From Solanum dulcamara (taxonomy: Eukaryota > Streptophyta > Magnoliopsida > Solanales > Solanaceae), in contig NC_077243.1 of the NCBI RefSeq assembly GCF_947179165.1, positions 5,636,001-5,700,000 on the forward strand: DNA of 64,000 nucleotides. Reading direction: 5' to 3'. The notes under the pieces were generated by a model. That model did not search any database. It saw nothing but the letters and a program-made list of their open reading frames with translations, and was not told where the DNA came from. Position numbers and translations under genes: made by a program. Positions 10,401 to 50,937 of the stretch are shown in pieces (the stretch's first letter is position 1; the number at the start of each line of letters is the position of its first letter).

Positions 10401-10401
10401 C

Positions 10402-10446
<45 letters not shown>

Positions 10447-19400: not shown

Positions 19401-22400
19401 ATTATAAAACAATATAGGCAAAAGAAGTATGCGATCAGTACTATAGAATGTACTCAGTATGGAGAATATGCAATGCATGACATAAACATGATAATGCAAT
19501 GAACGTGCTAAATCATAAGAAAGCCTTTAAAACATCATAAAAAGCATAAGACAGGGTCAATGCAAAAATTCGTAAAGAAAGCATAGTAAAACATAACATA
19601 GTGAAAGATACCATTAACCGACAATAAACCATGTGAGCTATAACATGGAGTCCAGTGTCATTCCTCTCACACCGAAAAGAGATTGTCTTACTTGCCGAGG
19701 TAAGGACCATAAACAAGAGCTATTGTGGATCCACTACTTAAGGCCAATTAAGGCACTCCTACGGGGCATGTAGTTCTAGGACCTGAGTAATCGCCACTAG
19801 TCCAACTCGGTGCTAGGTGATACTCTCAACGGAATAGTCATAACCACATCACAATATCATCATAGCATACTTGAAAATCATAAGAATAGCTCCTTTAGCA
19901 AATCATGATATCATAACATTTTCATAGAGATACTTATCTAAGCATCAAAATCACGATAAGCTAGAAAAATCATGGAAAACCTTCATGATTAGACTACTTC
20001 CCTTTCGAAGTTAATCTTAGTTTCTTAAAATTCATGATAGAATACTTTACATTGAAGCAACCTTTGTCTTCATCAAAATAGTAATTGATTTTTTCCATAA
20101 AAACGTCCTTGAAATCATAGTCATAAATTCATGACGTATGTATAATTCTTAACCATAGGTCAAATTTATGAAAAAAGGCATAATACATGGGTTCATGTAA
20201 CTCATCAAAAACATGTAATTAAGATCCATTCATACATAATAAGATTATCGAAATGGAATAAAATCATAATTAATTGAATCCAATGCAAGATTATCAAATT
20301 ACCTAGGGTTTATGAAGAAATCATAAGAGGAATTAAAAATACTTTGGGACTCTATGGATGAAAGAGGATCCATGGATGAAATTCCCACGTACCTTGATGA
20401 ATCAAAACCTTAGAAAGTCTTGCAATAGAGACTTTAGCTTGAAACCTTAGCTTGACTTGAAGAAGAAAACTTGAGAGATTTTTGAGTGGGAGAGTTTGAG
20501 AGAGAATGGGGAAATTTGGAGGGTTGGGTACTTACAGGTCGTGGGAAAGTAGTTCAAAATGACATAGCTTTAATATTAAAAAATGGAAAATGTCCAAAAT
20601 AGCCAGGTCTATGGGTGCCTCTACGGACCATAGAAGCCTATACGGCCCGTAGAAATTACCTTGAGTTTCTGAATCCAAGGTCTACGGGTCCCTTATATGG
20701 CCCGTAGAAACTTATATGACCAGTTTCAATCGTCCGTAGACCCAAAGCACTAAATGTCAAATTTCTGAAGTCTTCTTCTACGATCCACTTGTAAGGTTCG
20801 TAGAACGTTACACGCCCTCTTGTCTGCGAACTTCCAAAACTCCAAGTCTCTGAATCTTCATCTACGGCCTCTTCTACGGACCATAAGACCTTATACGGTC
20901 CGTAGATGGTCCCGTCCAAAGAATCAATGACCAAAATTTTCTTCCAAGTTTTGGCCTCGTTTCCACGACTGCCTCCTACGGTCCGTAAGTCCTTGTATGG
21001 ACTGTACGAGGGCTCGTACAAACTGACACCAATAGATTTCTGCAACTTTTCTTCAAGTCTTAACTTTCCAACTTCCGTGGGGTTACTTTTTGGTGCTACA
21101 GACAACTATGGGGAAATCATGGCGCGATTACAGACCTCCTATATGTTGATAACTCTCTTATTATTTGTGTTTTTAGTTACTTGTTCTTGCATTACATGTA
21201 TAGTTTTCATTGTTCCCATAGCACTTTTCTTACTAAGGCTTGCCGCTTGTGCTTTAAGCCCCAATAGAGTTGGTGCTTTTCTGTGCTCCTTGTTTTTGAC
21301 TACTCTGTTAGATACTTTTAATGGATATCATCTTTTTCCTTGCTTCTGCTGAGCATTTTCATTTGATGAAAGTATATCTAACCTTTTTCATGGTATCCTG
21401 ATTTAAGATTTGCTGAAGAACTTCCTCTGCTGTTATATCCTATTTTTACCTATTTTACGGAGTTGATAATGTTTTGGGTAGAACTTGCATGAGTTAATTC
21501 CATTCTCCATGGACTGAAATGTGTTTCACTTTATGAGACCTATTTTCTCTGCATTCTTAATGTCAATTTCTTGAGCAGGGTTTGAATGTTGATAATGATG
21601 TGCCGGTGCTAACTCCTGGTACTGAAAGCAAGAAGAATGTTTGCAGCAAAGCAAAGTTATATAATGTAAGTTGGTCATACTTTAATTACAGCCCGGTACA
21701 CTAACCCTTGACTCTTTCTCTTCTGTAGTCATCTTATTTCATAGGGTTAGTCACTTTGCTATCAAAGTGCTGCTACATTGTACGTTGTCATCTCCTTCTA
21801 ACTAAACATTAGACTTTGCATCTCTAAGCACTAAGATCCAATCACATTATCTGAAAGAAAATAATGACTTCTGAAAGAATGAAATAGTCCTTCCTTGTAA
21901 TTTAAACCTTCAAAAGAGAAGTTATAAGCGGAGACGCATATTCACGTGAATTTATTTTTCCTTAACCTTCTTTGACGCTCAAACTGATTCTAATTGTAAG
22001 TTCTCCTAGGCATTAATTTATGATGGTCCTTGTTATATCCTCTACTTTTGCCTTTGCTAAATTAGTCCTTTTCACCTTGCACGACAACTATTTTGGTCTC
22101 TAAAAGTGTTCAGAGTGTCATTGTGAATGGCAAACTGCAGCAGAAGTTTAGAACAAAGTAACCCAGAAGGCATGCATGGCGAAGTGATAGAAATCTGAAA
22201 AACTTAATCTTAGTATTTATTTCACAACACCTGACTATGCTCAAAATTTTGGCAGGGGAAAGCAACTGATGATCCGACGACTCCAACAATGTAAGTTATT
22301 TTTATCGCAGTTAGACCCCCTTTGCATAATAATAAATGGAATTCGAGCTGAACGAAGTATTTTTTTTATGAAGGACCGTGCAGCATAATTTAACTCCAAA

Positions 22401-32129: not shown

Positions 32130-32255
32130 ATGGATGCCCCGGCTCGTGCTTCTGTGTCTGAGGAGGAGGAACACAACAGAGGACTTTTTGAAGCTGGGAA
32201 TGAGCTGCATCAGACGCCCCCTTCTTCTAAAGAGGAGCTTCTGGAGAAACTTGAT
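32130..32255 (+). CDS. Copy 2 exon 1, intact
   Basis: 42 codons, phase 0 at the donor, closely similar to copy 1 exon 1 but with EEEEHNRG and HQTPPSS. It has an intact start and donor, so it can still head a transcript. Confidence 0.6.
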
Positions 32256-32693
32256 GTGAGAGCCTTTTCTTTTCTCTTTCCATCTGTTTATCCGCTTAAA
32301 CCTATGAAATAAAAAGTACATAGCGACCAAGGGGCCTCAATTTTTCTATGAGATTCTGAAACATTTTTGTGCTTTTCCCCCTTTACTGCGATTAAAGCTT
32401 CTATGTGAATGTGTGTTGCTTCCTAAACAGGTTTGAAATTTGTTTCCTTTTTTTGGTTACCGTTTTTAGGAAAATTTTAGTTGTTTAATTGGTTTACTAC
32501 CTGGATATTCAACTTATCAGTGGGGGTTTGATTCCTACCTTGTAAAAAATGATCCTTTTCTGTCAATGTAAGGTAGATTGATCATGATTTGTATCAGGTG
32601 AGATTCTGATAAGCACCCCTTGTGAAAGATCATCTCCTATAAGAGGTCTATTTGATTTTAAAGAAATTTTAGTAATTAAAACTTCTGTGTCAA

Positions 32694-33444
32694 CCTTAAA
32701 GAGCAAAACGCTCATGAATGAGATGAGTAATTGCTTGTGACTAGTGCTATCTTGTTGGTCAGTATAGTTTCATTGGCTTCTGGTCTTAGAGTTTTGTCTT
32801 GGTCAATTTCTGTCTTAGGAGAACTTATATGTGGGTGCCTCAGCAGTTGCATGTCCTTGAAAGATTGCCCCAGCTGAGATTCAGTGTGCCTTTTTTGGGA
32901 ATATAAATTGTTCTATTTTGAATTGTTTTGGGCTTTGAAGGTGATCAATTGATTATGTCCAATTCGGAACATGTAGAGCCAGTAAAATGGGGATGGAAAC
33001 ATGGAAAAGGACGGCAGTGATTTGTAGTGTCGCTTTTCCTCTTCTCTGTTTTGGCAACATGAAGAAGGCTGAGATGTTGGTAGTTGTAGATCAGATTGTT
33101 ATGGTTAAGCCTTCAGGGATTAGCTCAATAGGCACAAGTTGATGGACTTATGTATTAGGTCACAATTTCGAGCCTTTCACCAGGCAAACTCAATCAGGTA
33201 TTTAAGTGGAGAAGGGTAGAGGAGCGGGCCCATCATCCCCAAGTTCCAAAGGTTGCGGTTGGCCCAAAGGGTTGGCTCCAGATGGATTTCTCGAACTTAA
33301 AAGAAAGATTGGTAGACTTGAAAAGTAAAAAGGAAAGGAAGTAAAGGCCGAAAGACCAGGAGGTATGGGAGAAAATATGTCTGATTGCCGGCACCAATCA
33401 ACTATTAGGTACAGTTTCAGCAGCTTCAATCGGTCTCATGAATG
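32694..33444 (+). repeat. Partial first unit of the array (intron 3 sequence)
   Basis: It begins at the intron 1 / intron 3 junction (TGTCAACC|TTAAAGAGC) and contains the SINE copy. Its variant TTGGTCAG...CATTGGCTTCTGG (about 32753-32780) matches the segment between units 6 and 7 (about 44513), not units 1-5. Confidence 0.8.
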
Positions 33445-35383
33445 GAGGTATACCTTATACTATTCAAAAAATGTTGAAACATCTGAACAATCACAACATC
33501 TGACTTGAGATCCAACATCAGCACGCACGTTCGGTACTTTGCAAGAACTTCAATAGTTGAGACAACCTTTGAATAACAGCGACCATCCAAGCAAGACAAC
33601 TTCCCAAACTCCAACACTGCAAGCTCAAAAAAGTCCTGTCCTCAAATTGAACAAGAAACCAAACAATGAGTATGTATAAATGTTATTCATGTATCCAAGA
33701 AAATCATAGATGCATAACTACTACAGAATCTGAACCATCAATTACAAAGCAAAAAAGCTTCGCTACAAGAAAGACTGGCAACCAGTCTGGCTTCCAATTT
33801 GGGTAAAGAAAGCTGCATGAGTTGTACTTGCCTTAATTCTGCTATCATCATATGGTTGATCTGGAGCTGTAATTCTCATGACCTCACTGATGCAAGATGC
33901 AACTGACACCTTTACATCTATGTCAGGATGTCGTGAAGGTGTCAGATGCATCTTCCGTCAGTGAGATCATGAGAAATGCAGCTCCAGTTCAACCATATGA
34001 TGATAGCAGACTTGAGGCAAGTACAACTCGTACAGCCTTCTTTGCTCAAATTGGAATAAATATCGATTGCCAGTCTCTCTTCTACCTAAGTTGTTTAGCT
34101 TTTTAATTGATGGTTTAGATTTTGTAGTAGTTATGCATATATGATTTTCTTGGATGCAAGAATAATATTTATATATACTCATAGTTTGGTTTCTTGCTCA
34201 ATTGGCGGACAAGACTTTTTTGAGCTTGCAGTGTTGGAGTTTGGGAAGTTGTCCTGCTTAGATGGTCGCTGTTATTCCAAGGCTGTCTAACCTATTGAAG
34301 TTCTTGATAGTATCGAACGTGCGTGCTGATGTTGGATCTCAAGTTAGATTCTGTGATTGTTCAGATGTTTCAACATTTTTTGAACAGTTTAAGGTATACC
34401 TCCCTCCAATTGTGTTATACATTCATAATTTTTATAAAGGAAAGAGGGATGGAAACCAACCACATGGGTGTAACTTTGCTGGTATTTTATCTCTTATTGG
34501 TCATTTATTTCTGGTAATATAATGTATGCTCTGTCCTTGCCACAAGTTAAAGTATTACTTTTCCCTTTTCTACATTTTCATTTAGTTATTTGTGTACTAG
34601 GACAAGAAAAGAACTGAACTGCAAACTGTCAACCTTAAAGAGCAAAACGCTCATGAATGAGATGAGTAATTGCTTGTGACTAGTGCTATCTTGCTGTTCA
34701 GTATAGTTTCGTTGGTTGTTGCGCCTAGAGTTTTGTCTTGGTCAATTTCTGTCTTAGGAGAACTTATATGTGGGTGCCTCAGCAGTTGCATGTCCTTGAA
34801 AGATTGCCCCAGCTGAGATTCAGTGTGCCTTTTTTGGGAATATAAATTGTTCTATTTTGAATTGTTTTGGGCTTTGAAGGTGATCAATTGATTATGTCCA
34901 ATTCGGAACATGTAGAGCCAGTAAAATGGGGATGGAAACATGGAAAAGGACGGCAGTGATTTGTAGTGTCGCTTTTCCTCTTCTCTGTTTTGGCAACATG
35001 AAGAAGGTTGAGATGTTGGTAGTTGTAGATCAGATTGTTATGGTTAAGCCTTCAGGGATTAGCTCAATAGGCACAGGTTGATGGACTTATGTATTAGGTC
35101 ACAATTTCGAGCCTTTCACCAGGCAAACTCAATCAGGTATTTAAGTGGAGAAGGGTAGAGGAGCGGGCCCATCATCCCCAAGTTCCAAAGGTTGCGGTTG
35201 GCCCAAAGGGTTGGCTCCAGATGGATTTCTCGAACTTAAAAGAAAGATTGGTAGACTTGAAAAGTAAAAAGGAAAGGAAGTAAAGGCCGAAAGACCAGGA
35301 GGTATGGGAGAAAATATGTCTGATTGCCGGCACCAATCAACTATTAGGTACAGTTTCAGCAGCTTCAATCGGTCTCATGAATG
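33445..35383. repeat. Array unit 1 (1939 bp) with inverted repeat
   Basis: The left arm 33445-33911 is the reverse complement of part of exon 2, intron 2, exon 3 and the start of intron 3. The right arm 33936-34402 is the same in forward direction. The loop is about 24 bp. Forward intron 3 sequence with the SINE follows. Minus-strand fragments such as [17 protein letters not shown] and [10 protein letters not shown] show the origin. Confidence 0.93.
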
Positions 35384-37322
35384 GAGGTATACCTTATACT
35401 ATTCAAAAAATGTTGAAACATCTGAACAATCACAACATCTGACTTGAGATCCAACATCAGCACGCACGTTCGGTACTTTGCAAGAACTTCAATAGTTGAG
35501 ACAACCTTTGAATAACAGCGACCATCCAAGCAAGACAACTTCCCAAACTCCAACACTGCAAGCTCAAAAAAGTCCTGTCCTCAAATTGAACAAGAAACCA
35601 AACAATGAGTATGTATAAATGTTATTCATGTATCCAAGAAAATCATAGATGCATAACTACTACAGAATCTGAACCATCAATTACAAAGCAAAAAAGCTTC
35701 GCTACAAGAAAGACTGGCAACCAGTCTGGCTTCCAATTTGGGTAAAGAAAGCTGCATGAGTTGTACTTGCCTTAATTCTGCTATCATCATATGGTTGATC
35801 TGGAGCTGTAATTCTCATGACCTCACTGATGCAAGATGCAACTGACACCTTTACATCTATGTCAGGATGTCGTGAAGGTGTCAGATGCATCTTCCGTCAG
35901 TGAGATCATGAGAAATGCAGCTCCAGTTCAACCATATGATGATAGCAGACTTGAGGCAAGTACAACTCGTACAGCCTTCTTTGCTCAAATTGGAATAAAT
36001 ATCGATTGCCAGTCTCTCTTCTACCTAAGTTGTTTAGCTTTTTAATTGATGGTTTAGATTTTGTAGTAGTTATGCATATATGATTTTCTTGGATGCAAGA
36101 ATAATATTTATATATACTCATAGTTTGGTTTCTTGCTCAATTGGCGGACAAGACTTTTTTGAGCTTGCAGTGTTGGAGTTTGGGAAGTTGTCCTGCTTAG
36201 ATGGTCGCTGTTATTCCAAGGCTGTCTAACCTATTGAAGTTCTTGATAGTATCGAACGTGCGTGCTGATGTTGGATCTCAAGTTAGATTCTGTGATTGTT
36301 CAGATGTTTCAACATTTTTTGAACAGTTTAAGGTATACCTCCCTCCAATTGTGTTATACATTCATAATTTTTATAAAGGAAAGAGGGATGGAAACCAACC
36401 ACATGGGTGTAACTTTGCTGGTATTTTATCTCTTATTGGTCATTTATTTCTGGTAATATAATGTATGCTCTGTCCTTGCCACAAGTTAAGGTATTACTTT
36501 TCCCTTTTCTACATTTTCATTTAGTTATTTGTGTACTAGGACAAGAAAAGAACTGAACTGCAAACTGTCAACCTTAAAGAGCAAAACGCTCATGAATGAG
36601 ATGAGTAATTGCTTGTGACTAGTGCTATCTTGCTGTTCAGTGTAGTTTCGTTGGTTGTTGCGCCTAGAGTTTTGTCTTGGTCAATTTCTGTCTTAGGAGA
36701 ACTTATATGTGGGTGCCTCAGCAGTTGCATGTCCTTGAAAGATTGCCCCAGCTGAGATTCAGTGTGCCTTTTTTGGGAATATAAATTGTTCTATTTTGAA
36801 TTGTTTTGGGCTTTGAAGGTGATCAATTGATTATGTCCAATTCGGAACATGTAGAGCCAGTAAAATGGGGATGGAAACATGGAAAAGGACGGCAGTGATT
36901 TGTAGTGTCGCTTTTCCTCTTCTCTGTTTTGGCAACATGAAGAAGGCTGAGATGTTGGTAGTTGTAGATCAGATTGTTATGGTTAAGCCTTCAGGGATTA
37001 GCTCAATAGGCACAAGTTGATGGACTTATGTATTAGGTCACAATTTCGAGCCTTTCACCAGGCAAACTCAATCAGGTATTTAAGTGGAGAAGGGTAGAGG
37101 AGCGGGCCCATCATCCCCAAGTTCCAAAGGTTGCGGTTGGCCCAAAGGGTTGGCTCCAGATGGATTTCTCGAACTTAAAAGAAAGATTGGTAGACTTGAA
37201 AAGTAAAAAGGAAAGGAAGTAAAGGCCGAAAGACCAGGAGGTATGGGAGAAAATATGTCTGATTGCCGGCACCAATCAACTATTAGGTACAGTTTCAGCA
37301 GCTTCAATCGGTCTCATGAATG
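35384..37322. repeat. Array unit 2 (1939 bp) with inverted repeat
   Basis: Arms about 35384-35850 and 35875-36341. Nearly identical to unit 1. It differs at sites that alternate along the array (for example GTTAAGG near 36486 and CAGTGTAG near 36638). Confidence 0.93.
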
Positions 37323-39261
37323 GAGGTATACCTTATACTATTCAAAAAATGTTGAAACATCTGAACAATCACAACATCTGACTTGAGATCCAACATCAGC
37401 ACGCACGTTCGGTACTTTGCAAGAACTTCAATAGTTGAGACAACCTTTGAATAACAGCGACCATCCAAGCAAGACAACTTCCCAAACTCCAACACTGCAA
37501 GCTCAAAAAAGTCCTGTCCTCAAATTGAACAAGAAACCAAACAATGAGTATGTATAAATGTTATTCATGTATCCAAGAAAATCATAGATGCATAACTACT
37601 ACAGAATCTGAACCATCAATTACAAAGCAAAAAAGCTTCGCTACAAGAAAGACTGGCAACCAGTCTGGCTTCCAATTTGGGTAAAGAAAGCTGCATGAGT
37701 TGTACTTGCCTTAATTCTGCTATCATCATATGGTTGATCTGGAGCTGTAATTCTCATGACCTCACTGATGCAAGATGCAACTGACACCTTTACATCTATG
37801 TCAGGATGTCGTGAAGGTGTCAGATGCATCTTCCGTCAGTGAGATCATGAGAAATGCAGCTCCAGTTCAACCATATGATGATAGCAGACTTGAGGCAAGT
37901 ACAACTCGTACAGCCTTCTTTGCTCAAATTGGAATAAATATCGATTGCCAGTCTCTCTTCTACCTAAGTTGTTTAGCTTTTTAATTGATGGTTTAGATTT
38001 TGTAGTAGTTATGCATATATGATTTTCTTGGATGCAAGAATAATATTTATATATACTCATAGTTTGGTTTCTTGCTCAATTGGCGGACAAGACTTTTTTG
38101 AGCTTGCAGTGTTGGAGTTTGGGAAGTTGTCCTGCTTAGATGGTCGCTGTTATTCCAAGGCTGTCTAACCTATTGAAGTTCTTGATAGTATCGAACGTGC
38201 GTGCTGATGTTGGATCTCAAGTTAGATTCTGTGATTGTTCAGATGTTTCAACATTTTTTGAACAGTTTAAGGTATACCTCCCTCCAATTGTGTTATACAT
38301 TCATAATTTTTATAAAGGAAAGAGGGATGGAAACCAACCACATGGGTGTAACTTTGCTGGTATTTTATCTCTTATTGGTCATTTATTTCTGGTAATATAA
38401 TGTATGCTCTGTCCTTGCCACAAGTTAAAGTATTACTTTTCCCTTTTCTACATTTTCATTTAGTTATTTGTGTACTAGGACAAGAAAAGAACTGAACTGC
38501 AAACTGTCAACCTTAAAGAGCAAAACGCTCATGAATGAGATGAGTAATTGCTTGTGACTAGTGCTATCTTGCTGTTCAGTATAGTTTCGTTGGTTGTTGC
38601 GCCTAGAGTTTTGTCTTGGTCAATTTCTGTCTTAGGAGAACTTATATGTGGGTGCCTCAGCAGTTGCATGTCCTTGAAAGATTGCCCCAGCTGAGATTCA
38701 GTGTGCCTTTTTTGGGAATATAAATTGTTCTATTTTGAATTGTTTTGGGCTTTGAAGGTGATCAATTGATTATGTCCAATTCGGAACATGTAGAGCCAGT
38801 AAAATGGGGATGGAAACATGGAAAAGGACGGCAGTGATTTGTAGTGTCGCTTTTCCTCTTCTCTGTTTTGGCAACATGAAGAAGGTTGAGATGTTGGTAG
38901 TTGTAGATCAGATTGTTATGGTTAAGCCTTCAGGGATTAGCTCAATAGGCACAGGTTGATGGACTTATGTATTAGGTCACAATTTCGAGCCTTTCACCAG
39001 GCAAACTCAATCAGGTATTTAAGTGGAGAAGGGTAGAGGAGCGGGCCCATCATCCCCAAGTTCCAAAGGTTGCGGTTGGCCCAAAGGGTTGGCTCCAGAT
39101 GGATTTCTCGAACTTAAAAGAAAGATTGGTAGACTTGAAAAGTAAAAAGGAAAGGAAGTAAAGGCCGAAAGACCAGGAGGTATGGGAGAAAATATGTCTG
39201 ATTGCCGGCACCAATCAACTATTAGGTACAGTTTCAGCAGCTTCAATCGGTCTCATGAATG
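37323..39261. repeat. Array unit 3 (1939 bp) with inverted repeat
   Basis: Arms about 37323-37789 and 37814-38280. It carries the unit 1 variants (GTTAAAG near 38425). Confidence 0.93.
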
Positions 39262-41200
39262 GAGGTATACCTTATACTATTCAAAAAATGTTGAAACATC
39301 TGAACAATCACAACATCTGACTTGAGATCCAACATCAGCACGCACGTTCGGTACTTTGCAAGAACTTCAATAGTTGAGACAACCTTTGAATAACAGCGAC
39401 CATCCAAGCAAGACAACTTCCCAAACTCCAACACTGCAAGCTCAAAAAAGTCCTGTCCTCAAATTGAACAAGAAACCAAACAATGAGTATGTATAAATGT
39501 TATTCATGTATCCAAGAAAATCATAGATGCATAACTACTACAGAATCTGAACCATCAATTACAAAGCAAAAAAGCTTCGCTACAAGAAAGACTGGCAACC
39601 AGTCTGGCTTCCAATTTGGGTAAAGAAAGCTGCATGAGTTGTACTTGCCTTAATTCTGCTATCATCATATGGTTGATCTGGAGCTGTAATTCTCATGACC
39701 TCACTGATGCAAGATGCAACTGACACCTTTACATCTATGTCAGGATGTCGTGAAGGTGTCAGATGCATCTTCCGTCAGTGAGATCATGAGAAATGCAGCT
39801 CCAGTTCAACCATATGATGATAGCAGACTTGAGGCAAGTACAACTCGTACAGCCTTCTTTGCTCAAATTGGAATAAATATCGATTGCCAGTCTCTCTTCT
39901 ACCTAAGTTGTTTAGCTTTTTAATTGATGGTTTAGATTTTGTAGTAGTTATGCATATATGATTTTCTTGGATGCAAGAATAATATTTATATATACTCATA
40001 GTTTGGTTTCTTGCTCAATTGGCGGACAAGACTTTTTTGAGCTTGCAGTGTTGGAGTTTGGGAAGTTGTCCTGCTTAGATGGTCGCTGTTATTCCAAGGC
40101 TGTCTAACCTATTGAAGTTCTTGATAGTATCGAACGTGCGTGCTGATGTTGGATCTCAAGTTAGATTCTGTGATTGTTCAGATGTTTCAACATTTTTTGA
40201 ACAGTTTAAGGTATACCTCCCTCCAATTGTGTTATACATTCATAATTTTTATAAAGGAAAGAGGGATGGAAACCAACCACATGGGTGTAACTTTGCTGGT
40301 ATTTTATCTCTTATTGGTCATTTATTTCTGGTAATATAATGTATGCTCTGTCCTTGCCACAAGTTAAGGTATTACTTTTCCCTTTTCTACATTTTCATTT
40401 AGTTATTTGTGTACTAGGACAAGAAAAGAACTGAACTGCAAACTGTCAACCTTAAAGAGCAAAACGCTCATGAATGAGATGAGTAATTGCTTGTGACTAG
40501 TGCTATCTTGCTGTTCAGTATAGTTTCGTTGGTTGTTGCGCCTAGAGTTTTGTCTTGGTCAATTTCTGTCTTAGGAGAACTTATATGTGGGTGCCTCAGC
40601 AGTTGCATGTCCTTGAAAGATTGCCCCAGCTGAGATTCAGTGTGCCTTTTTTGGGAATATAAATTGTTCTATTTTGAATTGTTTTGGGCTTTGAAGGTGA
40701 TCAATTGATTATGTCCAATTCGGAACATGTAGAGCCAGTAAAATGGGGATGGAAACATGGAAAAGGACGGCAGTGATTTGTAGTGTCGCTTTTCCTCTTC
40801 TCTGTTTTGGCAACATGAAGAAGGCTGAGATGTTGGTAGTTGTAGATCAGATTGTTATGGTTAAGCCTTCAGGGATTAGCTCAATAGGCACAGGTTGATG
40901 GACTTATGTATTAGGTCACAATTTCGAGCCTTTCACCAGGCAAACTCAATCAGGTATTTAAGTGGAGAAGGGTAGAGGAGCGGGCCCATCATCCCCAAGT
41001 TCCAAAGGTTGCGGTTGGCCCAAAGGGTTGGCTCCAGATGGATTTCTCGAACTTAAAAGAAAGATTGGTAGACTTGAAAAGTAAAAAGGAAAGGAAGTAA
41101 AGGCCGAAAGACCAGGAGGTATGGGAGAAAATATGTCTGATTGCCGGCACCAATCAACTATTAGGTACAGTTTCAGCAGCTTCAATCGGTCTCATGAATG
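39262..41200. repeat. Array unit 4 (1939 bp) with inverted repeat
   Basis: Arms about 39262-39728 and 39753-40219. It carries the unit 2 variant GTTAAGG near 40365. Confidence 0.93.
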
Positions 41201-43138
41201 GAGGTATACCTTATACTATTCAAAAAATGTTGAAATATCTGAACAATCACAGCATCTGACTTGAGATCCAACATCAGCACGCACGTTCGGTACTTTGCAA
41301 GAACTTCAATAGTTGAGACAACCTTTGAATAACAGCGACCATCCAAGCAAGACAACTTCCCAAACTCCAACACTGCAAGCTCAAAAAAGTCCTGTCCTCA
41401 AATTGAACAAGAAACCAAACAATGAGTATGTATAAATGTTATTCATGTATCCAAGAAAATCATAGATGCATAACTACTACAGAATCTGAACCATCAATTA
41501 CAAAGCAAAAAAGCTTCGCTACAAGAAAGACTGGCAACCAGTCTGGCTTCCAATTTGGGTAAAGAAAGCTGCATGAGTTGTACTTGCCTTAATTCTGCTA
41601 TCATCATATGGTTGATCTGGAGCTGTAATTCTCATGACCTCACTGATGCAAGATGCAACTGACACCTTTACATCTATGTCAGGATGTCGTGAAGGTGTCA
41701 GATGCATCTTCCGTCAGTGAGATCATGAGAAATGCAGCTCCAGTTCAACCATATGATGATAGCAGACTTGAGGCAAGTACAACTCGTACAGCCTTCTTTG
41801 CTCAAATTGGAATAAATATCGATTGCCAGTCTCTCTTCTACCTAAGTTGTTTAGCTTTTTAATTGATGGTTTAGATTCTGTAGTAGTTATGCATATATGA
41901 TTTTCTTGGATGCAAGAATAATATTTATATATACTCATAGTTTGGTTTCTTGCTCAATTGGCGGACAAGACTTTTTTGAGCTTGCAGTGTTGGAGTTTGG
42001 GAAGTTGTCCTTCTTAGATGGTCTCTGTTATTCAAAGGCTGCTAACCTATTGAAGTTCTTGCAAGTATCGAACGTGCGTGCTGATGTTGGATCTCAAGTT
42101 AGATTCTGTGATTGTTCAGATGTTTCAACATTTTATGAACAGTTTAAGGTATACCTCCCTCCAATTGTGTTATACATTCATAATTTTTATAAAGGAAAGA
42201 GGGATGGAAACCAACCACATGGGTGTAACTTTGCTGGTATTTTATCTCTTATTGGTCATTTATTTCTGGTAATATAATGTATGCTCTGTCCTTGCCACAA
42301 GTTAAAGTATTACTTTTCCCTTTTCTACATTTTCATTTAGTTATTTGTGTACTAGGACAAGAAAAGAACTGAACTGCAAACTGTCAACCTTAAAGAGCAA
42401 AACGCTCATGAATGAGATGAGTAATTGCTTGTGACTAGTGCTATCTTGCTGTTCAGTATAGTTTCGTTGGTTGTTGCGCCTAGAGTTTTGTCTTGGTCAA
42501 TTTCTGTCTTAGGAGAACTTATATGTGGGTGCCTCAGCAGTTGCATGTCCTTGAAAGATTGCCCCAGCTGAGATTCAGTGTGCCTTTTTTGGGAATATAA
42601 ATTGTTCTATTTTGAATTGTTTTGGGCTTTGAAGGTGATCAATTGATTATGTCCAATTCAGAACATGTAGAGCCAGTAAAATGGGGATGGAAACATGGAA
42701 AAGGACGGCAGTGATTTGTAGTGTCGCTTTTCCTCTTCTCTGTTTTGGCAACATGAAGAAGGCTGAGATGTTGGTAGTTGTAGATCAGATTGTTATGGTT
42801 AAGCCTTCAGGGATTAGCTCAATAGGCACAGGTTGATGGACTTATGTATTAGGTCACAATTTCGAGCCTTTCACCAGGCAAACTCAATCAGGTATTTAAG
42901 TGGAGAAGGGTAGAGGAGCGGGCCCATCATCCCCAAGTTCCAAAGGTTGCGGTTGGCCCAAAGGGTTGGCTCCAGATGGATTTCTCGAACTTAAAAGAAA
43001 GATTGGTAGACTTGGAAAGTATAAAGGAAAGGAAGTAAAGGCCGAAAGACCAGGAGGTATGGGAGAAACTATGTCTGAATGCCGGCACCAATCAACTACT
43101 AGGTACAGTTTCAACAGCTTCAATCAGTCTCATGAATG
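41201..43138. repeat. Array unit 5 (1938 bp) with inverted repeat
   Basis: Arms about 41201-41667 and 41692-42157. It has changes not in units 1-4, such as AAATATCTGA and CAGCATCTGA in the left arm, and TTCTTAGATGGTCTC and TTTTATGAAC in the right arm. Confidence 0.92.
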
Positions 43139-45206
43139 GAGGTATACCTTATACTATTTAAAAAAAGTTGAAACATCTGAAGAATCACAGCATCTAAGTT
43201 GAGATCCAACATCAGCACGCATGTTCGGTACTTTGCAAGAACTTCAATAATTGAGACAACCTTTGAATAACAGCGACCATCCAAGCAAGGCGATTTCTCA
43301 ATCTCCAACACTGCAAGCTCAAAAAAGTCTATGTCCTCAAATTGAGCAAGAAACCAATCAATGAGTATGTATAAATGTTATTCATGTATCCAAGAAAATC
43401 ATAGATGCATAACTACTCCCGAATCTGAACCATCAATTCCAAAGCAAAACAGCTTTGCTAGAAGGAAGACTGGCAACCAATCTGACTTTCAATTTGGGTA
43501 AAGCTAGCAGCATGAGTTGTACTTGCCTTAATTCTGCTATCATATGGTTGATCTGGCGCTGTAATTCTCATGATCTCACTGATGCAAGATACGACTGACA
43601 CCTTCACATCTGTGTCAGGATGTTGTGAAGGTGTCAGTTGCATCTTCCGTCAATAAGATCATGATAATTACAGCTCCAGATCAACCATATGATGGTAGCA
43701 GACTTGAGGCAAGTACAACTCATACAGCCTTCTTTGCTCAAATTGGAATAAAGATCGATTGCCAGTCTTTCTTCTACCCTATGTTGCTCGGACTCTTCTA
43801 AAGTGTCAGCAGATGCGTGTCGGATTCTCCAAAAGTTGTGTATTTTAGGAGAATCCGACATTGGTGCGGCATCAAAAGTAAAGAGTCCGCGCAACTTATC
43901 TTCTACCTAAGTTGTTGTGCTTTTTAATTGATGGTTCAGATTCTGTAGTAGTTATGCATATATGATTTTTTTGGATGCAAGAATAATATTTATATATACT
44001 CATAGTTTGGTTTCTTGCTCAATTGGCGGACAAGACTTTTTTGAGCTTGCAGTGTTGGAGTTTGGGAAGTTGTCCTGCTTAGATGGTCGCTGTTATTCCA
44101 AGGCTGTCTAACCTATTGAAGTTCTTGATAGTATCGAACGTGCGTGCTGATGTTGGATCTCAAGTTAGATTCTGTGATTGTTCAGATGTTTCAACATTTT
44201 TTGAACAGTTTAAGGTATACCTCCCTCCAATTGTGTTATACATTCATAATTTTTATAAAGGAAAGAGGGATGGAAACCAACCACATGGGTGTAACTTTGC
44301 TGGTATTTTATCTCTTATTGGTCATTTATTTCTGGTAATATAATGTATGCTCTGTCCTTGCCACAAGTTAAAGTATTACTTTTCCCTTTTCTACATTTTC
44401 ATTTAGTTATTTGTGTACTAGGACAAGAAAAGAACTGAACTGCAAACTGTCAACCTTAAAGAGCAAAACGCTCATGAATGAGATGAGTAATTGCTTGTGA
44501 CTAGTGCTATCTTGTTGGTCAGTATAGTTTCATTGGCTTCTGGGCTTAGAGTTTTGTCTTGGTCAATTTCTGTCTTAGGAGAACTTATATGTGGGTGCCT
44601 CAGCAGTTGCATGTCCTTGAAAGATTGCCCCAGCTGAGATTCAGTGTGCCTTTTTTGGGAATATAAATTGTTCTATTTTGAATTGATTTGGGCTTTGAAG
44701 GTGATCAATTGATTATATGCCCAATTCAGAAAATGTAGAGCTAGTAAAATGGGGGTGGAAATATGGAATAGGACAGCAGTGATTTGTAGTGTCGCTTTTC
44801 CTCTTCTCTGTGTTGGCAACATGAAGAAGGTTGAGATGTTGGTAGTTGTAGATCAGATTGTTATGGTTAAGCCTTCAGGGATTAGCTCAATAGGCACAGG
44901 TTGATGGACTTATGTATTAGGTCACAATTTCGAGCCTTTCCCCAGGCAAACTCAATCAGGTATTTAAGTGGAGAAGGGTAGAGGAGCGGGCCCATCATCC
45001 CCAAGTTCCAAAGGTTGCGGTTGGCCCAAAGGGTTGGCTCCAGATGGATTTCTCGAACTTAAAAGAAAGATTGGTAGACTTGAAAAGTAAAAAGGAAAGG
45101 AAGTAAAGGCCGAAAGACCAGGAGGTATGGGAGAAAATATTTCTGATTGCCGGCACCAATCAACTATTAGGTACAGTTTCAGCAGCTTCAATCGGTCTCA
45201 TGAATG
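43139..45206. repeat. Array unit 6 (2068 bp), diverged, with MITE insertion
   Basis: Left arm from 43139; right arm to 44223. It is clearly more diverged than units 1-5. It carries a 120-bp element plus 9-bp target duplication in the right arm, and that total of 129 bp equals its excess over the 1939-bp period. Confidence 0.9.
43779..43898. mobile_element. Small TIR element (Mutator-like MITE), copy B
   Basis: Starts CTATGTTGCTCGGACTCTTC and ends AAGAGTCCGCGCAACTTA, with an inner hairpin as in copy A (17588-17708). A perfect 9-bp direct repeat TCTTCTACC flanks it at 43770-43778 and 43899-43907. The six other array units have the uninterrupted site, so this is a clear insertion. A 9-bp duplication fits Mutator-like elements. 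Confidence 0.88.
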
Positions 45207-46164
45207 GAGGTATACCTTATACTATTCAAAAAATGTTGAAACATCTGAACAATCACAGCATCTGACTTGAGATCCAACATCAGCACGCACGTTCGGTACT
45301 TTGCAAGAACTTCAATAGTTGAGACAACCTTTGAATAACAGCGACCATCCAAGCAAGATAATTTCCCAAACTCCAACACTGCAAGCTCAAAAAAGTCCTG
45401 TCCTCAAATTGAACAAGAAACTAAACAATGAGTATGTATAAATGTTATTCATGTATCCAAGAAAATCATAGATGCATAACTACTACAGAATCTGAACCAT
45501 CAATTACAAAGCAAAACAGCTTCACTACAAGAAAGACTGGCAACCAGTCTGGCTTCCAATTTGGGTAAAGAAAGCTGCATGAGTTGTACTTGCCTTAATT
45601 CTGCTATCATCATATGGTTGATCTGGAGCTGTAATTCTCATGACCTCACTGATGCAAGATGCAACTGACACCTTTACATCTATGGCAGGATGTCTTGAAG
45701 GTGTCAGATGCATCTTCCGTCAGTGAGATCAAGAGAATTACAGCTCCAGATCAACCATATGATGATAGCAGACTTGAGGCAAGTACAACTCGTACAGCCT
45801 TCTTTGCTCAAATTGGAATAAATATCGATTGCCAATCTCTCTTCTACCTAAGTTGTTTAGCCTTTTAATTGATGGTTTAGATTCTGTAGTAGTTATGCAT
45901 ATATGATTTTCTTGGATGCAAGAATAATATTTATATATACTCATAGTTTGGTTTCTTGTTCAATTGGCGGACAAGACTTTTTTGAGCTTGCAGTGTTGGA
46001 GTTTGGGAAGTTGTCCTGCTTAGATGGTCGCTGTTATTCAAAGGCTGTCTAACCTATTGAAGTTCTTGAAAGTATCGAACGTGTGTGCTGATGTTGGATC
46101 TCAAGTTAGATGCTGTGATTGTTCAGATGTTTCAACATTTTTTGAACAGTATAAGGTATACCTC
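45207..46164. repeat. Array unit 7, last inverted repeat
   Basis: Left arm from 45207; right arm to 46164. The right arm (GAATTACAGCTCCAGATCAA) is closer to copy 1 exon 2 than in units 1-5, so it looks older. After it the sequence continues in the native order of intron 3. Confidence 0.92.
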
Positions 46165-47894
46165 CCTCCAATTGTGTTATACATTCATAATTTTTATAAA
46201 GGAAAGAGGGATGGAAACCAACCACATGGGTGTAACTTTGCTGGTATTTTATCTCTTATTGGTCATTTATATCTGGTAATATACGGTATGCTTTGTCCTT
46301 GCCACAAGTTAAAGTATTACTTTTCCCTTTTCTACATTTTCATTTAGTTATTTGTGTACTAGGACAAGAAAAGAACTGAACTGCAAACTTGCTGTTCAGT
46401 ATAGTTTCGTTGGCTACTGGGCTTAGAGTTTTGTCTTGGCCAATTTCTTTCTTAGGAGAACTTTTATTTGGGTTCTAGAGCAGTTGCATGTCCTCGAACG
46501 ATTGCTCCAGCTGAGAACAAGCAATTCCGTGAGCCTTTTTTTGAATTTAAATTGTTCTATTTGAATTTACTTGGGCTTTGAAGGTGATCAATTGCTTATG
46601 TCCAATTCAGAACACAGAGATAGTAAAATGGGAGTGGAAACGTGGATAAGAATAGCTGTAATTTACAGTGTTGCTTTTCCTCTTTTCACTTTTGGCGACA
46701 TGATGTAAGTTGGGATGTTGGTATTCTTAAACGATTGGCTGACTTATGCCCACAGTCACCGGTTGAGGGACTTGGGTATTAGGTCACAAGTTTGAGTCCT
46801 TCCCCAAGTGAACTAAATCCAGTATTTAAGTGGAGATGGGTAGAGGAGAGGGACCATCAGCCCCGAGTTCCGATGCTTGCAGTTGGCCCAAAGGGTTGGC
46901 TGCAGACGGATTTCTCGATCTTAAAAAAGATTGGTTGACTTTAAAAGTAAAAAAGAAAGGACGCAGAGGCTGAAAGACCAGAGGGAGTGGTAGAAACTTA
47001 GTCTCATTGCTGGCACCAATCAACTACTAGGTACAGTTTCAGCAGCTTCAATCAGTCTCATGATGAAGAGAAGTCACTTCCAAATGAATATACCCGCTCA
47101 CCAATAAACTATTCACAATTCTAATTTATATTTAGTTGATATAACCTTGTCCATGAAGCATGCACAGTTTTTGTCCGCAGAAAATCTCCACAACTTATGC
47201 TAAGAGCGTTGTATTATAGGTGGATAGTGTCCTAATTCTTGCTCACTCCATTTGGGAACCATAATCTTCTTCCTCTCTCTAGTCCCTACTAGGTGAAGTT
47301 CGTATGGCCCCTTCTTTCCCTTCCAATAACAAATCACCAAGTTGTTGAAACACTTACAAGCATGCAAAGACAATAGATTTTAAGCATGTGGGTATATTAA
47401 AGAGAGTTGATGTAAATACTGTTAGCTTCCCTCCCTTGGTATATAGTCTTTTCATCCACTAATTTTTTCCTGAAATTTCTCTACAACTGGCTGCTAAATA
47501 AAATATTTCTCCATGCAACTTTACAACTTCTAAAAATTCAATGTTTTTGACTATTCAAATTTGAAATCTGATAAATATGATATTTTCTTTATCAAACTAA
47601 TTCTTTGACTATTAATTAGATAGTTTTCCGCTATCACTGGTTAATCACAAGTCAATTATACATCCTTAATTTGGACCCCAATCAAACACTGTTATAGCAA
47701 ATGGGATGGAGGGAGTATATGACAGTTTTAGCAGTATATTCATCGTGGTACCTTCATATCTTGAATGCAGCATAAATGAACTTACTAAGGTACATTGCGT
47801 GTCAAAGTCTACCAGATTATTTTTTCCTTCATAAAATTCAAAGACTACCAGTTTCTCAGTATGCCATTTTTTTCTTCTGGGGAATGGCTGACAA
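46165..47894 (+). other. Native intron 3 flank of copy 2
   Basis: It aligns with copy 1 from about 3785 to 5600 without inversion. It includes a SINE copy at about 46745-46930, whose flanks GATTGGCTGACTT and GATTGGTTGACTT are the worn target duplication. A block of about 100 bp, present in the array units, is missing near 46390. Confidence 0.75.
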
Positions 47895-48776
47895 TTTATT
47901 TTTTTAAGGTGAGAGGGAGATCTTTTTTTTTCTCCAAATGAGTTATTATTTATTTATTAAAAAATAAAATCAATCCATAATACAAATCAGGCCTAAAAGA
48001 TCAGCTCAAAATGAAAAAAAAAACAAAAAGGAAACTAAGGAAAACAACTAAACAGAAGCCAGATAAAATCTGGACCAACAAACGCCTCTTCATCTTTGTC
48101 GGACTTTCACTCGCCTGAAAGGCTGCCATGGCGATCTCGGAGAAGGGAAGAGACACTAAAATCCAATCAAGAACAACCAGAGAAACTGAACAAGCTTGGA
48201 TAGAATCCACATTAGACATTTCGAACTCTCACAAATGTCATGAATTCTGACTCCAATGAAATAGAAAATTTCAGCTCAAACTGTGTCTAGTAAGTTTCTT
48301 TTAGTATCCCCAATCACATTGCTGAAGAGAATGAACCTTGAGTCGATTTCTATATCAGTGATAATCCATCCTTAACATTTCTTCCCCACAGATTGAGCTT
48401 TTGCTGATACCACTGCATAGGAGTAAATATCAAGGACGGCCATTCACTGACAAGAAATCTGTTCTGAAACAGAGGTAAGCTGCTAGCGTAGTTTCTGATT
48501 ACTAGCTATATGAATTAATTTGTTTCCCTAAAATCTCTATTTTGAAATCTTCTAATTCGTAGATTAGGGATTTGGGCCTTCTACATTTCCAGTATAGCTT
48601 TAGCTTCCGTTGTAGATCTTGTCTTGAATTATATATGATATGATTAGTACCTGCAAAACAGAAAAATTGATTAGTTATAAATTCAGCAAGTCGATTGCCT
48701 TCCCTGAATGTGTGTTTTACTCTTACTGCATTAGCTAAAGGCAACATTATATGTTTTATCCTTTGTAACAACTGTT
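47895..48776 (-). mobile_element. LINE 3' fragment in intron 3 of copy 2
   Basis: It is absent at the aligned site of copy 1 (about 5608). On the minus strand 48771-48502 reads VRVKHTFREGNRLAEFITNQ and CRRPKSLIYEL-type sequence, which resembles the RNase H-like C-terminus of plant L1 polymerases. T-rich sequence near 47900-47935 fits a poly(A) tail. The part 48300-48500 is not assigned. Confidence 0.6.
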
Positions 48777-48798
48777 TTGTCTCTTGCCCTATTTTAAG

Positions 48799-48937
48799 GC
48801 CGGACCACCCTGATCAAATATTCATGAACATCAAAGAAATAATGACCATGATAATAAAAGAGAGTGAAGAAAGTCGAATGCAGCTTCTGAACATCCTTGT
48901 GAACTTCTTCATAAGTAGTTTTAGGAAGGAAAATCAG
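48799..48937 (+). pseudogene. Copy 2 exon 4-like, donor lost
   Basis: It reads PDHPDQIFMNIKEIMTMIIK ... MQLLNILVNFFISSFRKENQ, with four extra residues (NFFI region) relative to copy 1. The following bases are ATGTTG where copy 1 has GTATTG. Confidence 0.8.
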
Positions 48938-49010
48938 ATGTTGCTTTTCCTCTATAAGTATATTCATTTGTCTTTCTCATTGTTTTCAATGACATCTTAT
49001 TTTGGTTTAG

Positions 49011-49178
49011 AATGTTTCACCTCATTCCTACGTTCTGGGAGAGAATTTTCTTCAAGAAAATGCTGTCAAACTTTATCCATATCTTCCAAAAGTAGTGACA
49101 GACCTCGGCATTTCCTTTAACAACTATTCAGAAGTTGTTAAATTGATATGGAGAGACTCAATTTTAAGTAAAGCAACA
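49011..49178 (+). pseudogene. Copy 2 exon 5-like
   Basis: 56 codons, NVSPHSYVLGENFLQENAVK ... LIWRDSILSKAT, the same length and phases as copy 1 exon 5, with an intact acceptor and GTGGGT donor. It is non-functional because its neighbours are broken. Confidence 0.78.
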
Positions 49179-50097
49179 GTGGGTTTATCTGATATTCTAT
49201 GTAATTGCTGCATTTATTTGTAAAATACATTATTATTCTCCGCTTCTCCTTTTCCTATCTAATTTACAAAGAAATGGAAGCAGATAAACATGCAATGTTC
49301 TTTTTGTGGTAGACCATCTTTGCTATGACTTTCAAGTTGTGTATTCTGTCAAACTAATCCTCTTTTCTTGATTATGTTCTGATTTCTCAGCTTTGGTGTC
49401 CCGGAGGAGTAATAGAAAACTGACATATTTTGTGACCCTTGGAATACGAATGCTAAAATGTAGGAAATATGTCTAGGGATCAGTGCTTAATCAGCCGATC
49501 GTGAAAAATGGATTATACGGATTATCTAATAATCTTAGGAAAAAGAGGTGGGAAAAGAAAGGAATATGAAATTAACTATCAAAAAAGAAAAGAGGAAAGA
49601 AAAATGTAATCCTTGATGTCAAGTGACAGTTCCGATGAAGGAAATAATGTCATGTTTGACCATTCAAATAAGATGACTAGGATCCTCCTTGTTTATGCCT
49701 TGAAGGCAATCTATAGCATCAGCTGCTAGTATTTGTTATGGATCATGCTACTACACAATGTGCTACAGAGTTTTTATAACTTTGATCCCATGTTCCTTGT
49801 TAAATTTAAAGCGCTGTGATCATAACTTGTCTGGTGATGTTTCTCTTTAGTTCTTTTTACTTTTATAAACTCAGGAACGTGTACACATGTTGTTTTCCAC
49901 CAAGCCGTCCTCATTTTTAGACTAGCTTGAGAAAGATAAAACTTAAGCTCCTTTACGAGATAGTCAGAAGCTCTTGTTTTGCTGATTAATTGTTGATCTA
50001 ACGGTGATAAGTAAAGGTAACTTCACAGATTATAGGTGATATTTGTTCTGGATTTATAGTAATGATGTGAATTCTTCCTTTGCAACACAATTGTCAG

Positions 50098-50837
50098 GTG
50101 GAAAATGCTCCCACAGAGCTTGCACCAAATGCTGCACCTGAGAGAGTTGCTCCGTTCTTAGATCAACCACCTATGTTGCGAAAGAAAGCTGATCCCAAGC
50201 ATAAGGACGGTGATGTCGTTATAAAGATGGATACAACTTTAAAGGAATCAGAACATGGAGATGCAATGAAGCAGCAGAAAAGCACCGATTCAAGGACCAC
50301 TTTGCGATCTGAAAACTTGGGTTTCATAAATGCAGCCAAAAAAGCACTAGATCCAGAAGCTACTCAAATTTCAAAGTAAAGAGGTTGGAAACCTACTTTT
50401 TTGAATAAACCAGAGGAAGGATATGATGATGCTTGGATAAGTGGAGAACGGAGATCAAAATCCCATATTCTCTTGAAGGGTTGTGGGAAAGATACTTAAA
50501 AGAGGAGTAGCAGTTCACCTAAATGTGCAGTCTCCAATGATTTGTATTTTTCATCTGGTGAAGATAATACTCCAAATAATGACTTCTACAAAGAGACTCC
50601 AAAAGGAGAAAAATGACAAAATATCTGTGAATGATGGTGCACAATTTTCATCAATTTCAGCGAGATTCACCGGAAGCTATAACCAAGAAGAAAGTCTCAC
50701 AGCCTACATCATTTGCTTCAGAAGAATTTGCTGTTGTGCAATCATTAGAGAAACATGAAAACAACAAGAAGAAAACTCTACCTTCCAGATATCGTGAAAA
50801 ATGACGGCGGTCATCAGTTGGTGAATCAGGAGCTGTG
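50098..50837 (+). pseudogene. Copy 2 exon 6-like with nonsense codons
   Basis: The acceptor TTGTCAG is followed directly by [20 protein letters not shown]. The first 25 codons of copy 1 exon 6 are missing, an exact in-frame loss. TAA at 50377-50379 replaces AAA, and a second stop and frame changes follow near 50490-50680. Confidence 0.82.
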
Positions 50838-50937
50838 GTAAATCAAACAGTTTTCCGTCTTTTGTTAGCCAAACAGGTACGCATTGTTGTTTCTCCTTTA
50901 CCACACTTGTAACCTTTTTAGGATAGTTATTTTTTCG

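What the first reader, a model, noticed from the sequence alone, without database searches (positions are those of the whole stretch)
33445..46164. Tandem array of seven large hairpins made from exons 2-3 of the neighbouring PDS5-like gene
Each unit holds two arms of about 467 bp in opposite orientation around a loop of about 24 bp, and seven units follow each other at 1939-bp spacing. The arms match copy 1 exons 2 and 3, including several identical runs longer than 24 nt (for example in the stretches around 3350-3391 and 3632-3663 of copy 1). A conserved upstream region and intact exon 1 lie just before the array. A transcript would fold into long double-stranded RNA. Inverted duplication of a founder gene is a known origin of hairpin-siRNA loci and young MIRNA genes in plants, so this is a candidate self-targeting silencing locus acting on its own family. 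Transcription and silencing are inferred.
Basis: partly seen in the sequence, partly recalled or inferred. Interest (0 to 1): 0.88.

Follow-up and report, generated by a model that had tools for sequence, protein, structure and literature searches.

The report
Tandem hairpin array in PDS5 pseudogene
In bittersweet nightshade, a dead copy of a chromosome-cohesion gene carries seven near-identical tandem units that could each fold into a very long RNA hairpin; the structure is real and could silence its sister genes, but the sequence shows no sign that selection maintains it.

Summary
The window is Solanum dulcamara chromosome 7, 5,636,001-5,700,000. A dead PDS5-like gene (copy 2) has lost exons 2-3 and carries exactly seven tandem units (32689-46389) in their place. 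Each unit is spacer + inverted arm (about 491 bp) + direct arm (about 469 bp). One hairpin folds at -676 kcal/mol, against -230 for shuffles. Among the matches scored in the same genome, no second array was found.

The reading that it was made from the neighbouring gene is not supported. The inner inverted arm (exon 2 + intron 2) is sister to copy 5 (P0097), about 35 kb outside the window; the direct arm is not, and the arms share ancestry only in exon 3. Both array ends sit at the same base of the unit, a point unbroken inside the units: the mark of a circle or concatemer opened once and inserted.

Silencing is possible but untested. Pooled, the arms hold 95 and 92 of 244 perfect 21-mers of copies 4 and 5 but 45 of copy 1; single paralogs share 32-59. 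Four tests found no selection on pairing or targeting. Nearest known: Drosophila tandem hpRNA clusters and the soybean CHS inverted repeat. I call it a new variant of a known kind, function open.

The parts
32689..46389 (+). Array of exactly seven units, total 13701 bp; each unit = spacer (copy 1 intron 3, 4007-4758 equivalent) + inverted arm + direct arm with start of intron 3
   Evidence: sum of unit lengths and junctions
33444..33934 (-). Inverted arm, unit 1 (exon 3, intron 2, end of exon 2; open in frame on the minus strand)
33935..34403 (+). Direct arm, unit 1 (end of exon 2, intron 2, exon 3 with stop and frameshift)
35383..36342 (.). Hairpin of unit 2 (arms 35383-35873 / 35874-36342)
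37322..38281 (.). Hairpin of unit 3 (arms 37322-37812 / 37813-38281)
39261..40220 (.). Hairpin of unit 4 (arms 39261-39751 / 39752-40220); unit 4 is identical to unit 2
41200..42158 (.). Hairpin of unit 5 (arms 41200-41690 / 41691-42158)
43138..44224 (.). Hairpin of unit 6 (arms 43138-43626 / 43627-44224); inverted arm 7.4% from that of unit 1, direct arm broken by the MITE-like insert
43779..43899 (.). MITE-like insert in unit 6 only, with an 8-bp repeat (43771-43778 and 43900-43907) on both sides; 86% like 17589-17708
45206..46165 (.). Hairpin of unit 7 (arms 45206-45696 / 45697-46165)
32688..32689 (.). Left array junction: copy 2 intron 1 (copy 1 position about 1869) joined to unit point X (copy 1 4006/4007)
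46389..46390 (.). Right array junction: the same point X joined to copy 2 intron 3 (copy 1 about 4062), 2-nt microhomology; 64 bp of the unit sequence absent
32130..32255 (+). Copy 2 exon 1, open, GT donor kept
46390..50852 (+). Copy 2 rest: native intron 3, exon 4 (48799-48937, donor lost), exon 5 (49011-49178), exon 6 (50098-50837, stop codons)
1276..23085 (+). Copy 1: PDS5 homolog D-like gene, annotated as P0001 of S. dulcamara
59630..60769 (+). Copy 3: exon 1 and last exons only; the window's best match to annotated P0107 (LOC129894249)

Best explanation
A rearranged PDS5 pseudogene carrying a tandem hairpin-RNA locus. (1) Shown: copy 2 lost exons 2-3 and holds seven head-to-tail units whose arms would pair over about 470 bp. 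(2) Inferred from trees: the unit is a mosaic of at least two PDS5 lineages, with an inverted exon 2 + intron 2 piece from a copy-5-like gene and a direct segment plus spacer from a lineage with no closer source among the scored genome matches; the arms exchanged or share exon 3. (3) Inferred from the junctions: the unit existed as a circle or tandem concatemer, was opened once at point X in intron 3, and was joined by 1-2 nt of microhomology into a broken copy 2. Unequal exchange then homogenised the units. (4) Inferred, untested: if the copy 2 promoter is active, unspliced transcripts fold and are diced (DCL2/3/4, recalled pathway) into 21-24-nt siRNAs that could act on copies 4 and 5 and, less well, copy 1, and could methylate the array itself. 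The sequence shows no selection for this, so it is at best a young or incidental silencing locus.
For: Structure and fold. Host gene dead. Mosaic ancestry (arms of units 1, 5, 6 and 7, 8 of 14 arms, given to the DNA trees): inverted arm + copy 5 UFBoot 98 for exon 2 + intron 2 (1 of 82 differences in exon 2), both arms together UFBoot 86 for exon 3. Residues at positions 43 and 82 are shared by both arms and absent from 30 Solanaceae proteins and from P0097; a third, at 78, is shared with P0097. Spacer: host intron 3 groups with copy 5 (UFBoot 96) away from the array spacers (5 of 7 units given). Circle-like junctions: both ends at X within the 1-2 bp of ambiguity; X is unbroken inside the array and in copies 1, 4 and 5; two independent breaks within 2 bp would be about 5/1939. 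No other array among the matches scored in the 942-Mb assembly. Precedents for the steps: eccDNA reintegration with permuted ends (PMC7188851, abstract and passages); tandem hpRNA clusters derived from targets (PMC10317233, passages and section 11); siRNAs from an inverted repeat acting on genes 81% alike (PMC6710647, passages).
Against: No transcript or small-RNA data could be examined. Exon 1 to exon 4 splicing would remove the whole array as an intron. Selection tests are negative: within-unit arm mismatch 0.1199 against 0.1200 between units; G-U 16 against A-C 13 in units 1-4; arms and spacer diverge alike between units 1 and 7 (0.016 and 0.028 against 0.022); exon and intron 2 of the arms diverge alike within the array (5/285 against 3/196; 20/282 against 16/196). 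The claim that the donor was not the host is open: host exons 4-5 and 6 lean weakly to copy 4 (UFBoot 60 and 65), as do the direct arms (82) and the start of intron 3 in the units (84), so the host may itself be a mosaic whose intron 3 was replaced from a copy-5-like gene. Tree supports rest on about 180-760 bp; whole-arm placements have only 63-69. The circle is inferred from ends alone.
Confidence: 0.5

Rival explanations
1. Inert debris: a tandemly amplified pseudogene fragment that is never transcribed through, or is silenced, and makes no biologically relevant siRNA.
For: Host gene has stops and a lost donor; direct arms carry a stop and frameshift; arms drift as fast as the spacer and show no compensatory, G-U or exon-specific signal; a single arm matches family members about as well as paralogs match each other.
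Against: Open exon 1 and a recognisable 5' region remain. Plant inverted repeats of this kind are often diced (recalled; [quoted passage not shown] Absence of selection does not exclude siRNA production.
Confidence: 0.4
2. One reading: simple inverted duplication of exons 2-3 of one founder (copy 1) in place, followed by tandem amplification, giving a self-targeting silencing locus.
For: Fold-back junction with a loop of about 24 bp; arms together for exon 3 (UFBoot 86) and in protein trees of exons 2-3 with 4 of 14 arms (91 and 78).
Against: Exon 2 + intron 2 place the inverted arm with copy 5 (98) and the direct arm elsewhere; both arms differ from copy 1 by 11-14%; array ends require more than duplication in place.
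Confidence: 0.15
3. Array formed in place in copy 2 and both edges were later trimmed by independent deletions that happen to end at the same base of the unit.
For: Needs no circle; left loss (copy 1 1870-4006) and right loss (64 bp) are ordinary deletion sizes. Direct arms and host exons 4-6 both lean to copy 4, as this would predict, though weakly.
Against: Coincidence within 2 bp has a probability of about 5/1939; the host intron 3 groups with copy 5, not with the array spacer.
Confidence: 0.18
4. Assembly artefact: copy number or orientation invented by the assembler.
For: Units 2 and 4 are identical and units 1-4 nearly so, so the exact number could be off.
Against: Units 5, 6 and 7 carry private differences and unit 6 a private insert; 27-fold HiFi, contig N50 44.2 Mb, QV 57.2 (PMC10585204, passages).
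Confidence: 0.04
5. Transposon-borne gene fragment (Helitron or Pack-MULE capture).
For: Dispersed repeats exist in the spacer (query 427-619).
Against: By eye, no terminal repeats and no target duplication at either edge; among 24 matches listed for the hairpin and 40 scored of 258 candidates for the spacer, none is a second array copy.
Confidence: 0.03

Closest known systems
Drosophila hp-CG4068 cluster and hp-tHMG-cluster (hpRNA loci)
   Same: Many near-identical long hairpins in tandem, copy number labile, derived from a gene family; the tHMG cluster has 13 hpRNAs in about 27 kb beside paralogs of the target (PMC10317233, section 11 read and passages)
   Different: Those have Dcr-2-dependent siRNAs shown; here nothing is shown. 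Plant dicing pathway; arms here are 11-14% mismatched and of mixed paralog ancestry.
Soybean I locus, CHS inverted repeat (i-i allele)
   Same: Plant inverted repeat of a clustered gene family; siRNAs target paralogs 81% similar to CHS4 (PMC6710647, passages; PMC3804491, search listing)
   Different: Two identical 10.91-kb repeats around 5.71 kb, not a tandem array of short hairpins; function shown genetically.
Maize/teosinte Tpd1 hairpin
   Same: Long non-coding hairpin locus in a plant that silences a host gene in trans (PMC11390486, passages)
   Different: Single hairpin, 22-nt siRNAs and pollen drive shown.
[quoted passage not shown]
   Same: Fold-back made of target-family sequence (Allen 2004, seen only as a reference in PMC10317233)
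   Different: Arms of about 470 bp would give many siRNAs, not one miRNA; mosaic arms rather than one inverted duplication.
eccDNA-mediated duplication with reintegration (cattle, yeast, human)
   Same: Circle opened at a new point and inserted, so order is permuted (PMC7188851, abstract and passages)
   Different: Here the inserted piece is a seven-unit hairpin array and the donor is not found.

Membership tests
Endogenous hairpin-RNA (inverted-repeat) siRNA locus | Long, near-contiguous foldback in one transcription direction | tested here: met
Endogenous hairpin-RNA (inverted-repeat) siRNA locus | Transcript covering both arms | not testable with these tools
   no RNA-seq; 5' similarity only
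Endogenous hairpin-RNA (inverted-repeat) siRNA locus | Dicer-dependent 21-24-nt reads from the arms | not testable with these tools
   no small-RNA data
Endogenous hairpin-RNA (inverted-repeat) siRNA locus | Complementarity to a target above what kinship of paralogs gives | tested here: inconclusive
   Perfect 21-mers on the covered exon parts: 14 arms pooled 45, 95, 92 of 244 for copies 1, 4, 5; one inverted arm alone 42, 64, 59; one paralog against another 32-59. Pooling many variants raises the count by itself.
Endogenous hairpin-RNA (inverted-repeat) siRNA locus | Selection to keep pairing or targeting | tested here: not met
   little power
Tandem hpRNA cluster (Drosophila hp-CG4068 type) | Several near-identical hairpins head to tail | tested here: met
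   seven units
Tandem hpRNA cluster (Drosophila hp-CG4068 type) | siRNAs that depend on a Dicer | not testable with these tools
   no small-RNA data
Young MIRNA by inverted duplication | Both arms from one inverted duplication of the target gene | tested here: not met
   different ancestry for exon 2 + intron 2, shared for exon 3
Young MIRNA by inverted duplication | Known MIRNA model match | tested here: not met
   no Rfam family reaches its gathering score in the window
eccDNA-mediated duplication | Ends of the insert adjoin in the source sequence (circular permutation) | tested here: met
eccDNA-mediated duplication | Donor different from the acceptor locus | tested here: inconclusive
   host intron 3 with copy 5 at 96, apart from the spacers; but host exons 4-6 and the direct arms both lean weakly to copy 4
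eccDNA-mediated duplication | Donor locus identified | tested here: not met
   no closer source among scored matches in the genome

The most novel reading that the evidence does not exclude
A plant tandem hpRNA cluster built from an extrachromosomal circle: a circle carrying a mosaic PDS5 hairpin was amplified, inserted into a dead sister gene under that gene's promoter, and now feeds siRNAs onto a local cluster of still-open PDS5 cohesin-regulator genes. It would be the plant counterpart of the Drosophila tandem hpRNA clusters. PDS5 proteins are themselves reported to affect siRNA production in Arabidopsis (PMC11519323, passage), so a feedback is conceivable.
Probability: 0.25. Interest if true: 0.75.

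Novelty: new variant of a known kind. Interest (0 to 1): 0.5.

Why it matters
If it is transcribed and diced, it is a ready case of how long hairpin loci are born: not by one inverted duplication but by mosaic assembly, circle-like insertion and array homogenisation, with the junctions still readable. It would also tie small RNAs to dosage control of PDS5 cohesin regulators in a nightshade. If it is silent, it is still a clean record of how a hairpin array forms and decays without visible selection, a useful null case for calling silencing loci from sequence alone.

Tried and rejected
Copy 1 as founder: rejected on trees and distances. Plain inverted duplication: rejected for exon 2 + intron 2. 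Coding constraint on the inverted arms: all seven are open in exons 2-3 on the minus strand, but inverted arm 2 against inverted arm 6 has 14 replacement and 6 silent changes, so no clear constraint; other pairs gave dN/dS of 0.31-0.94 on few changes. The low count of exon changes private to the inverted arm (6/263 against 14/196 in intron 2, p 0.019), and the lower arm-arm divergence in exons than in intron 2 (p 0.019 for unit 2, 0.0016 for unit 7), could be read as constraint; I think exon 3 ancestry shared by the arms explains them better. Pairing selection (G-U excess, within-unit co-change): not found. Helitron or MULE: no ends seen by eye. Rfam: nothing at gathering scores. Viral contigs: nothing, as expected. 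A search for an annotated protein of copy 2 gave 13 proteins, two of them S. dulcamara, P0097 and P0107, neither from copy 2. Host gene placement: 5' part unresolved, exons 4-6 weakly with copy 4, intron 3 with copy 5.

Literature listings seen: 20 of 238; 20 of 30; 6 of 6; 12 of 305; 1 of 1. None of the titles or abstract openings listed reports this array or a plant tandem hpRNA cluster; that is not proof of absence in print.

Errors made and mended: the residue table used a wrong offset and was redone; one search stopped on a three-sequence tree and was finished; its intron 1 comparison used badly chosen ranges and is not used. The 21-mer control compared whole exons although the arms cover only the end of exon 2, and was redone like for like. 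My spliced copy 1 model has one residue more than P0001 at one exon edge (682 of 683 identical). After this check I lowered the main confidence from 0.55 to 0.5, because the donor-is-not-the-host argument is weaker than first written, and raised the trimming rival from 0.15 to 0.18.
Full report
WHERE. The spliced copy 1 protein matches an S. dulcamara PDS5 homolog D-like protein, P0001, at 682 of 683 positions (the odd one is an exon-edge choice of my model), on a 79,918,355-bp sequence. Chromosome 7 of the published assembly is 79.92 Mb (PMC10585204, passages), and the own-genome search places the window at C7:5,636,001-5,700,000. Pfam PDS5 (PF20168) matches the frames holding exons 2 and 3 of copy 1 above the cut-off; exon 4 matches weakly, below it. 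The assembly used 27-fold HiFi, contig N50 44.2 Mb, QV 57.2.

THE GENE CLUSTER. Copy 1 is open over the 11 exons joined here (683 aa, no stop), and the annotated protein runs on to 23085. Copy 2 (about 31117-50852) has an open exon 1, no exons 2-3 of its own, a lost exon 4 donor and stops in exon 6. Copy 3 (59630-60769) is exon 1 plus the last exons and is the window's best match to annotated P0107. Outside the window lie copy 4 = P0015 (from 75162 on the window scale) and copy 5 = P0097 (first matched residue at 99190; family similarity from 97361), and a further PDS5 match at C7:5,746,992-5,747,528. Other PDS5 matches lie on C1 and C8.

THE ARRAY. Self-comparison, repeat search and alignment agree on seven units. 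In copy 1 terms a unit is 4007-4758, then 3790-3294 inverted, then 3318-4006. Lengths are 1939 x4, 1938, 2066 and 1941; the sum is 13701, exactly 32689-46389. The loop comes from the 24-bp offset between 3294 and 3318. Unit 1 folds at -676.5 kcal/mol (z -60) and unit 7 at -695.2 (z -63). Units 2 and 4 are identical; unit 6 differs from the others by 62-90 substitutions, mostly between the end of the spacer and the MITE-like insert.

EDGES. On the left, copy 2 intron 1 stops at copy 1 position 1869 and the unit begins at X, in the context AAACT|GTCAACC. On the right, the last unit ends at X and joins native intron 3 at a point 64 bp further on in the unit, with a shared CT. Inside the array, and in copies 1, 4 and 5, X is unbroken. 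An insert whose two ends adjoin in the source is what a circle, or a concatemer, opened once would leave. Two unrelated breaks within 2 bp in a 1939-bp unit have a chance of about 5/1939.

ANCESTRY. Spacer tree (units 1, 2, 5, 6 and 7): host intron 3 with copy 5 (UFBoot 96), the array spacers apart (100). Start of intron 3 (units 1, 6 and 7): units with copy 4 at 84, but at 14-16% distance. Arms of units 1, 5, 6 and 7, exon 2 + intron 2: inverted arms with copy 5 at 98, direct arms with copy 4 at 82. Same arms, exon 3: inverted and direct together at 86. Whole-arm placements are weaker (63-69). In protein, both arms share residues at positions 43 and 82 that none of the 30 Solanaceae proteins compared has, nor P0097; position 82 does vary the same way somewhere in the wider set of 89. 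A third shared residue, at 78, is also in P0097, and inverted arm 6 has changed it. Reading: a mosaic unit with later arm-to-arm conversion in exon 3; a chimeric inverted arm is equally possible. Against a donor other than the host: host exons 4-5 and 6 lean weakly to copy 4 (60 and 65), as the direct arms do, so the host may be a mosaic too.

COULD IT SILENCE? On the exon parts that the arms cover, perfect 21-mers found in the 14 arms together: copy 1, 45 of 244; copy 4, 95 of 244; copy 5, 92 of 244. One inverted arm (unit 1) alone: 42, 64 and 59 of 244. One paralog against another: 32, 56 and 59 of 244. So copy 1 is matched as kinship would give, copies 4 and 5 somewhat better once all arm variants are pooled. 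Soybean CHS siRNAs act on genes 81% alike (PMC6710647), so this would suffice if siRNAs exist. One caution is that exon 1 to exon 4 splicing would remove the array as intron.

IS IT KEPT BY SELECTION? (a) Arm mismatch within units is 0.1199, between units 0.1200. (b) G-U against A-C mismatches: 16:13 in each of units 1-4, 16:12 in unit 5, 20:12 in unit 6, 18:14 in unit 7, none significant, although all lean towards G-U. (c) Arms and spacer diverge alike between units 1 and 7. (d) Exon and intron parts of the arms diverge alike within the array. None supports selection; the array's homogenisation leaves these tests little power. Between the two arms, exons differ less than intron 2 (p 0.019 and 0.0016 for units 2 and 7), which the shared exon 3 ancestry can explain.

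PLACE AMONG KNOWN THINGS. Architecture is closest to Drosophila hp-CG4068 (20 tandem copies in D. melanogaster, 9 in D. simulans) and the 13-hairpin hp-tHMG-cluster (PMC10317233). In plants the soybean CHS inverted repeat and the Tpd1 hairpin are single foldbacks with shown siRNAs. In the listings I saw no plant tandem hpRNA cluster appeared. Family membership as a silencing locus stays unproven: structure met, expression untestable here, selection not seen.

VERDICT. Real, unusual, well resolved in anatomy, partly in origin, undecided in function. I put about 0.4 on it making siRNAs in some tissue, and about 0.25 on it being a silencing locus with effect on the PDS5 cluster.

Noticed in passing
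window 9017-9918: Four tandem in-frame 93-nt exons in copy 1 (269-bp tandem repeat, 3.8 copies), each encoding a similar basic segment.
   Followed up: partly
window 6641-7114: A separate foldback in copy 1 intron 5 (about 188-bp arms, 92.6% alike), with a one-arm relative in copy 2 at 49528-49816.
   Followed up: no
window 3402; 33831 and the other six inverted arms: Intron 2 has a GC donor instead of GT in copies 1, 4 and 5 and in 7 of 7 inverted arms.
   Followed up: partly
window 59630-60769: Copy 3: exon 1 lies about 0.3 kb before the last exons; a PDS5-like gene without its middle, best match to annotated LOC129894249.
   Followed up: partly
window 11564-12281: Minus-strand reading frames that look by eye like a LINE reverse-transcriptase end inside a copy 1 intron (recalled resemblance, no search).
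   Followed up: no
G000:C7:5746992-5747528 and 86224-86821 on the window scale: A further PDS5 match over exons 2 and 3 and a fragment like copy 1's 5' part in the same cluster.
   Followed up: no
window 33114-33306 (query 427-619 of 32688-33440): Part of the spacer matches many places in the genome at 74-81%: a dispersed repeat inside intron 3.
   Followed up: no
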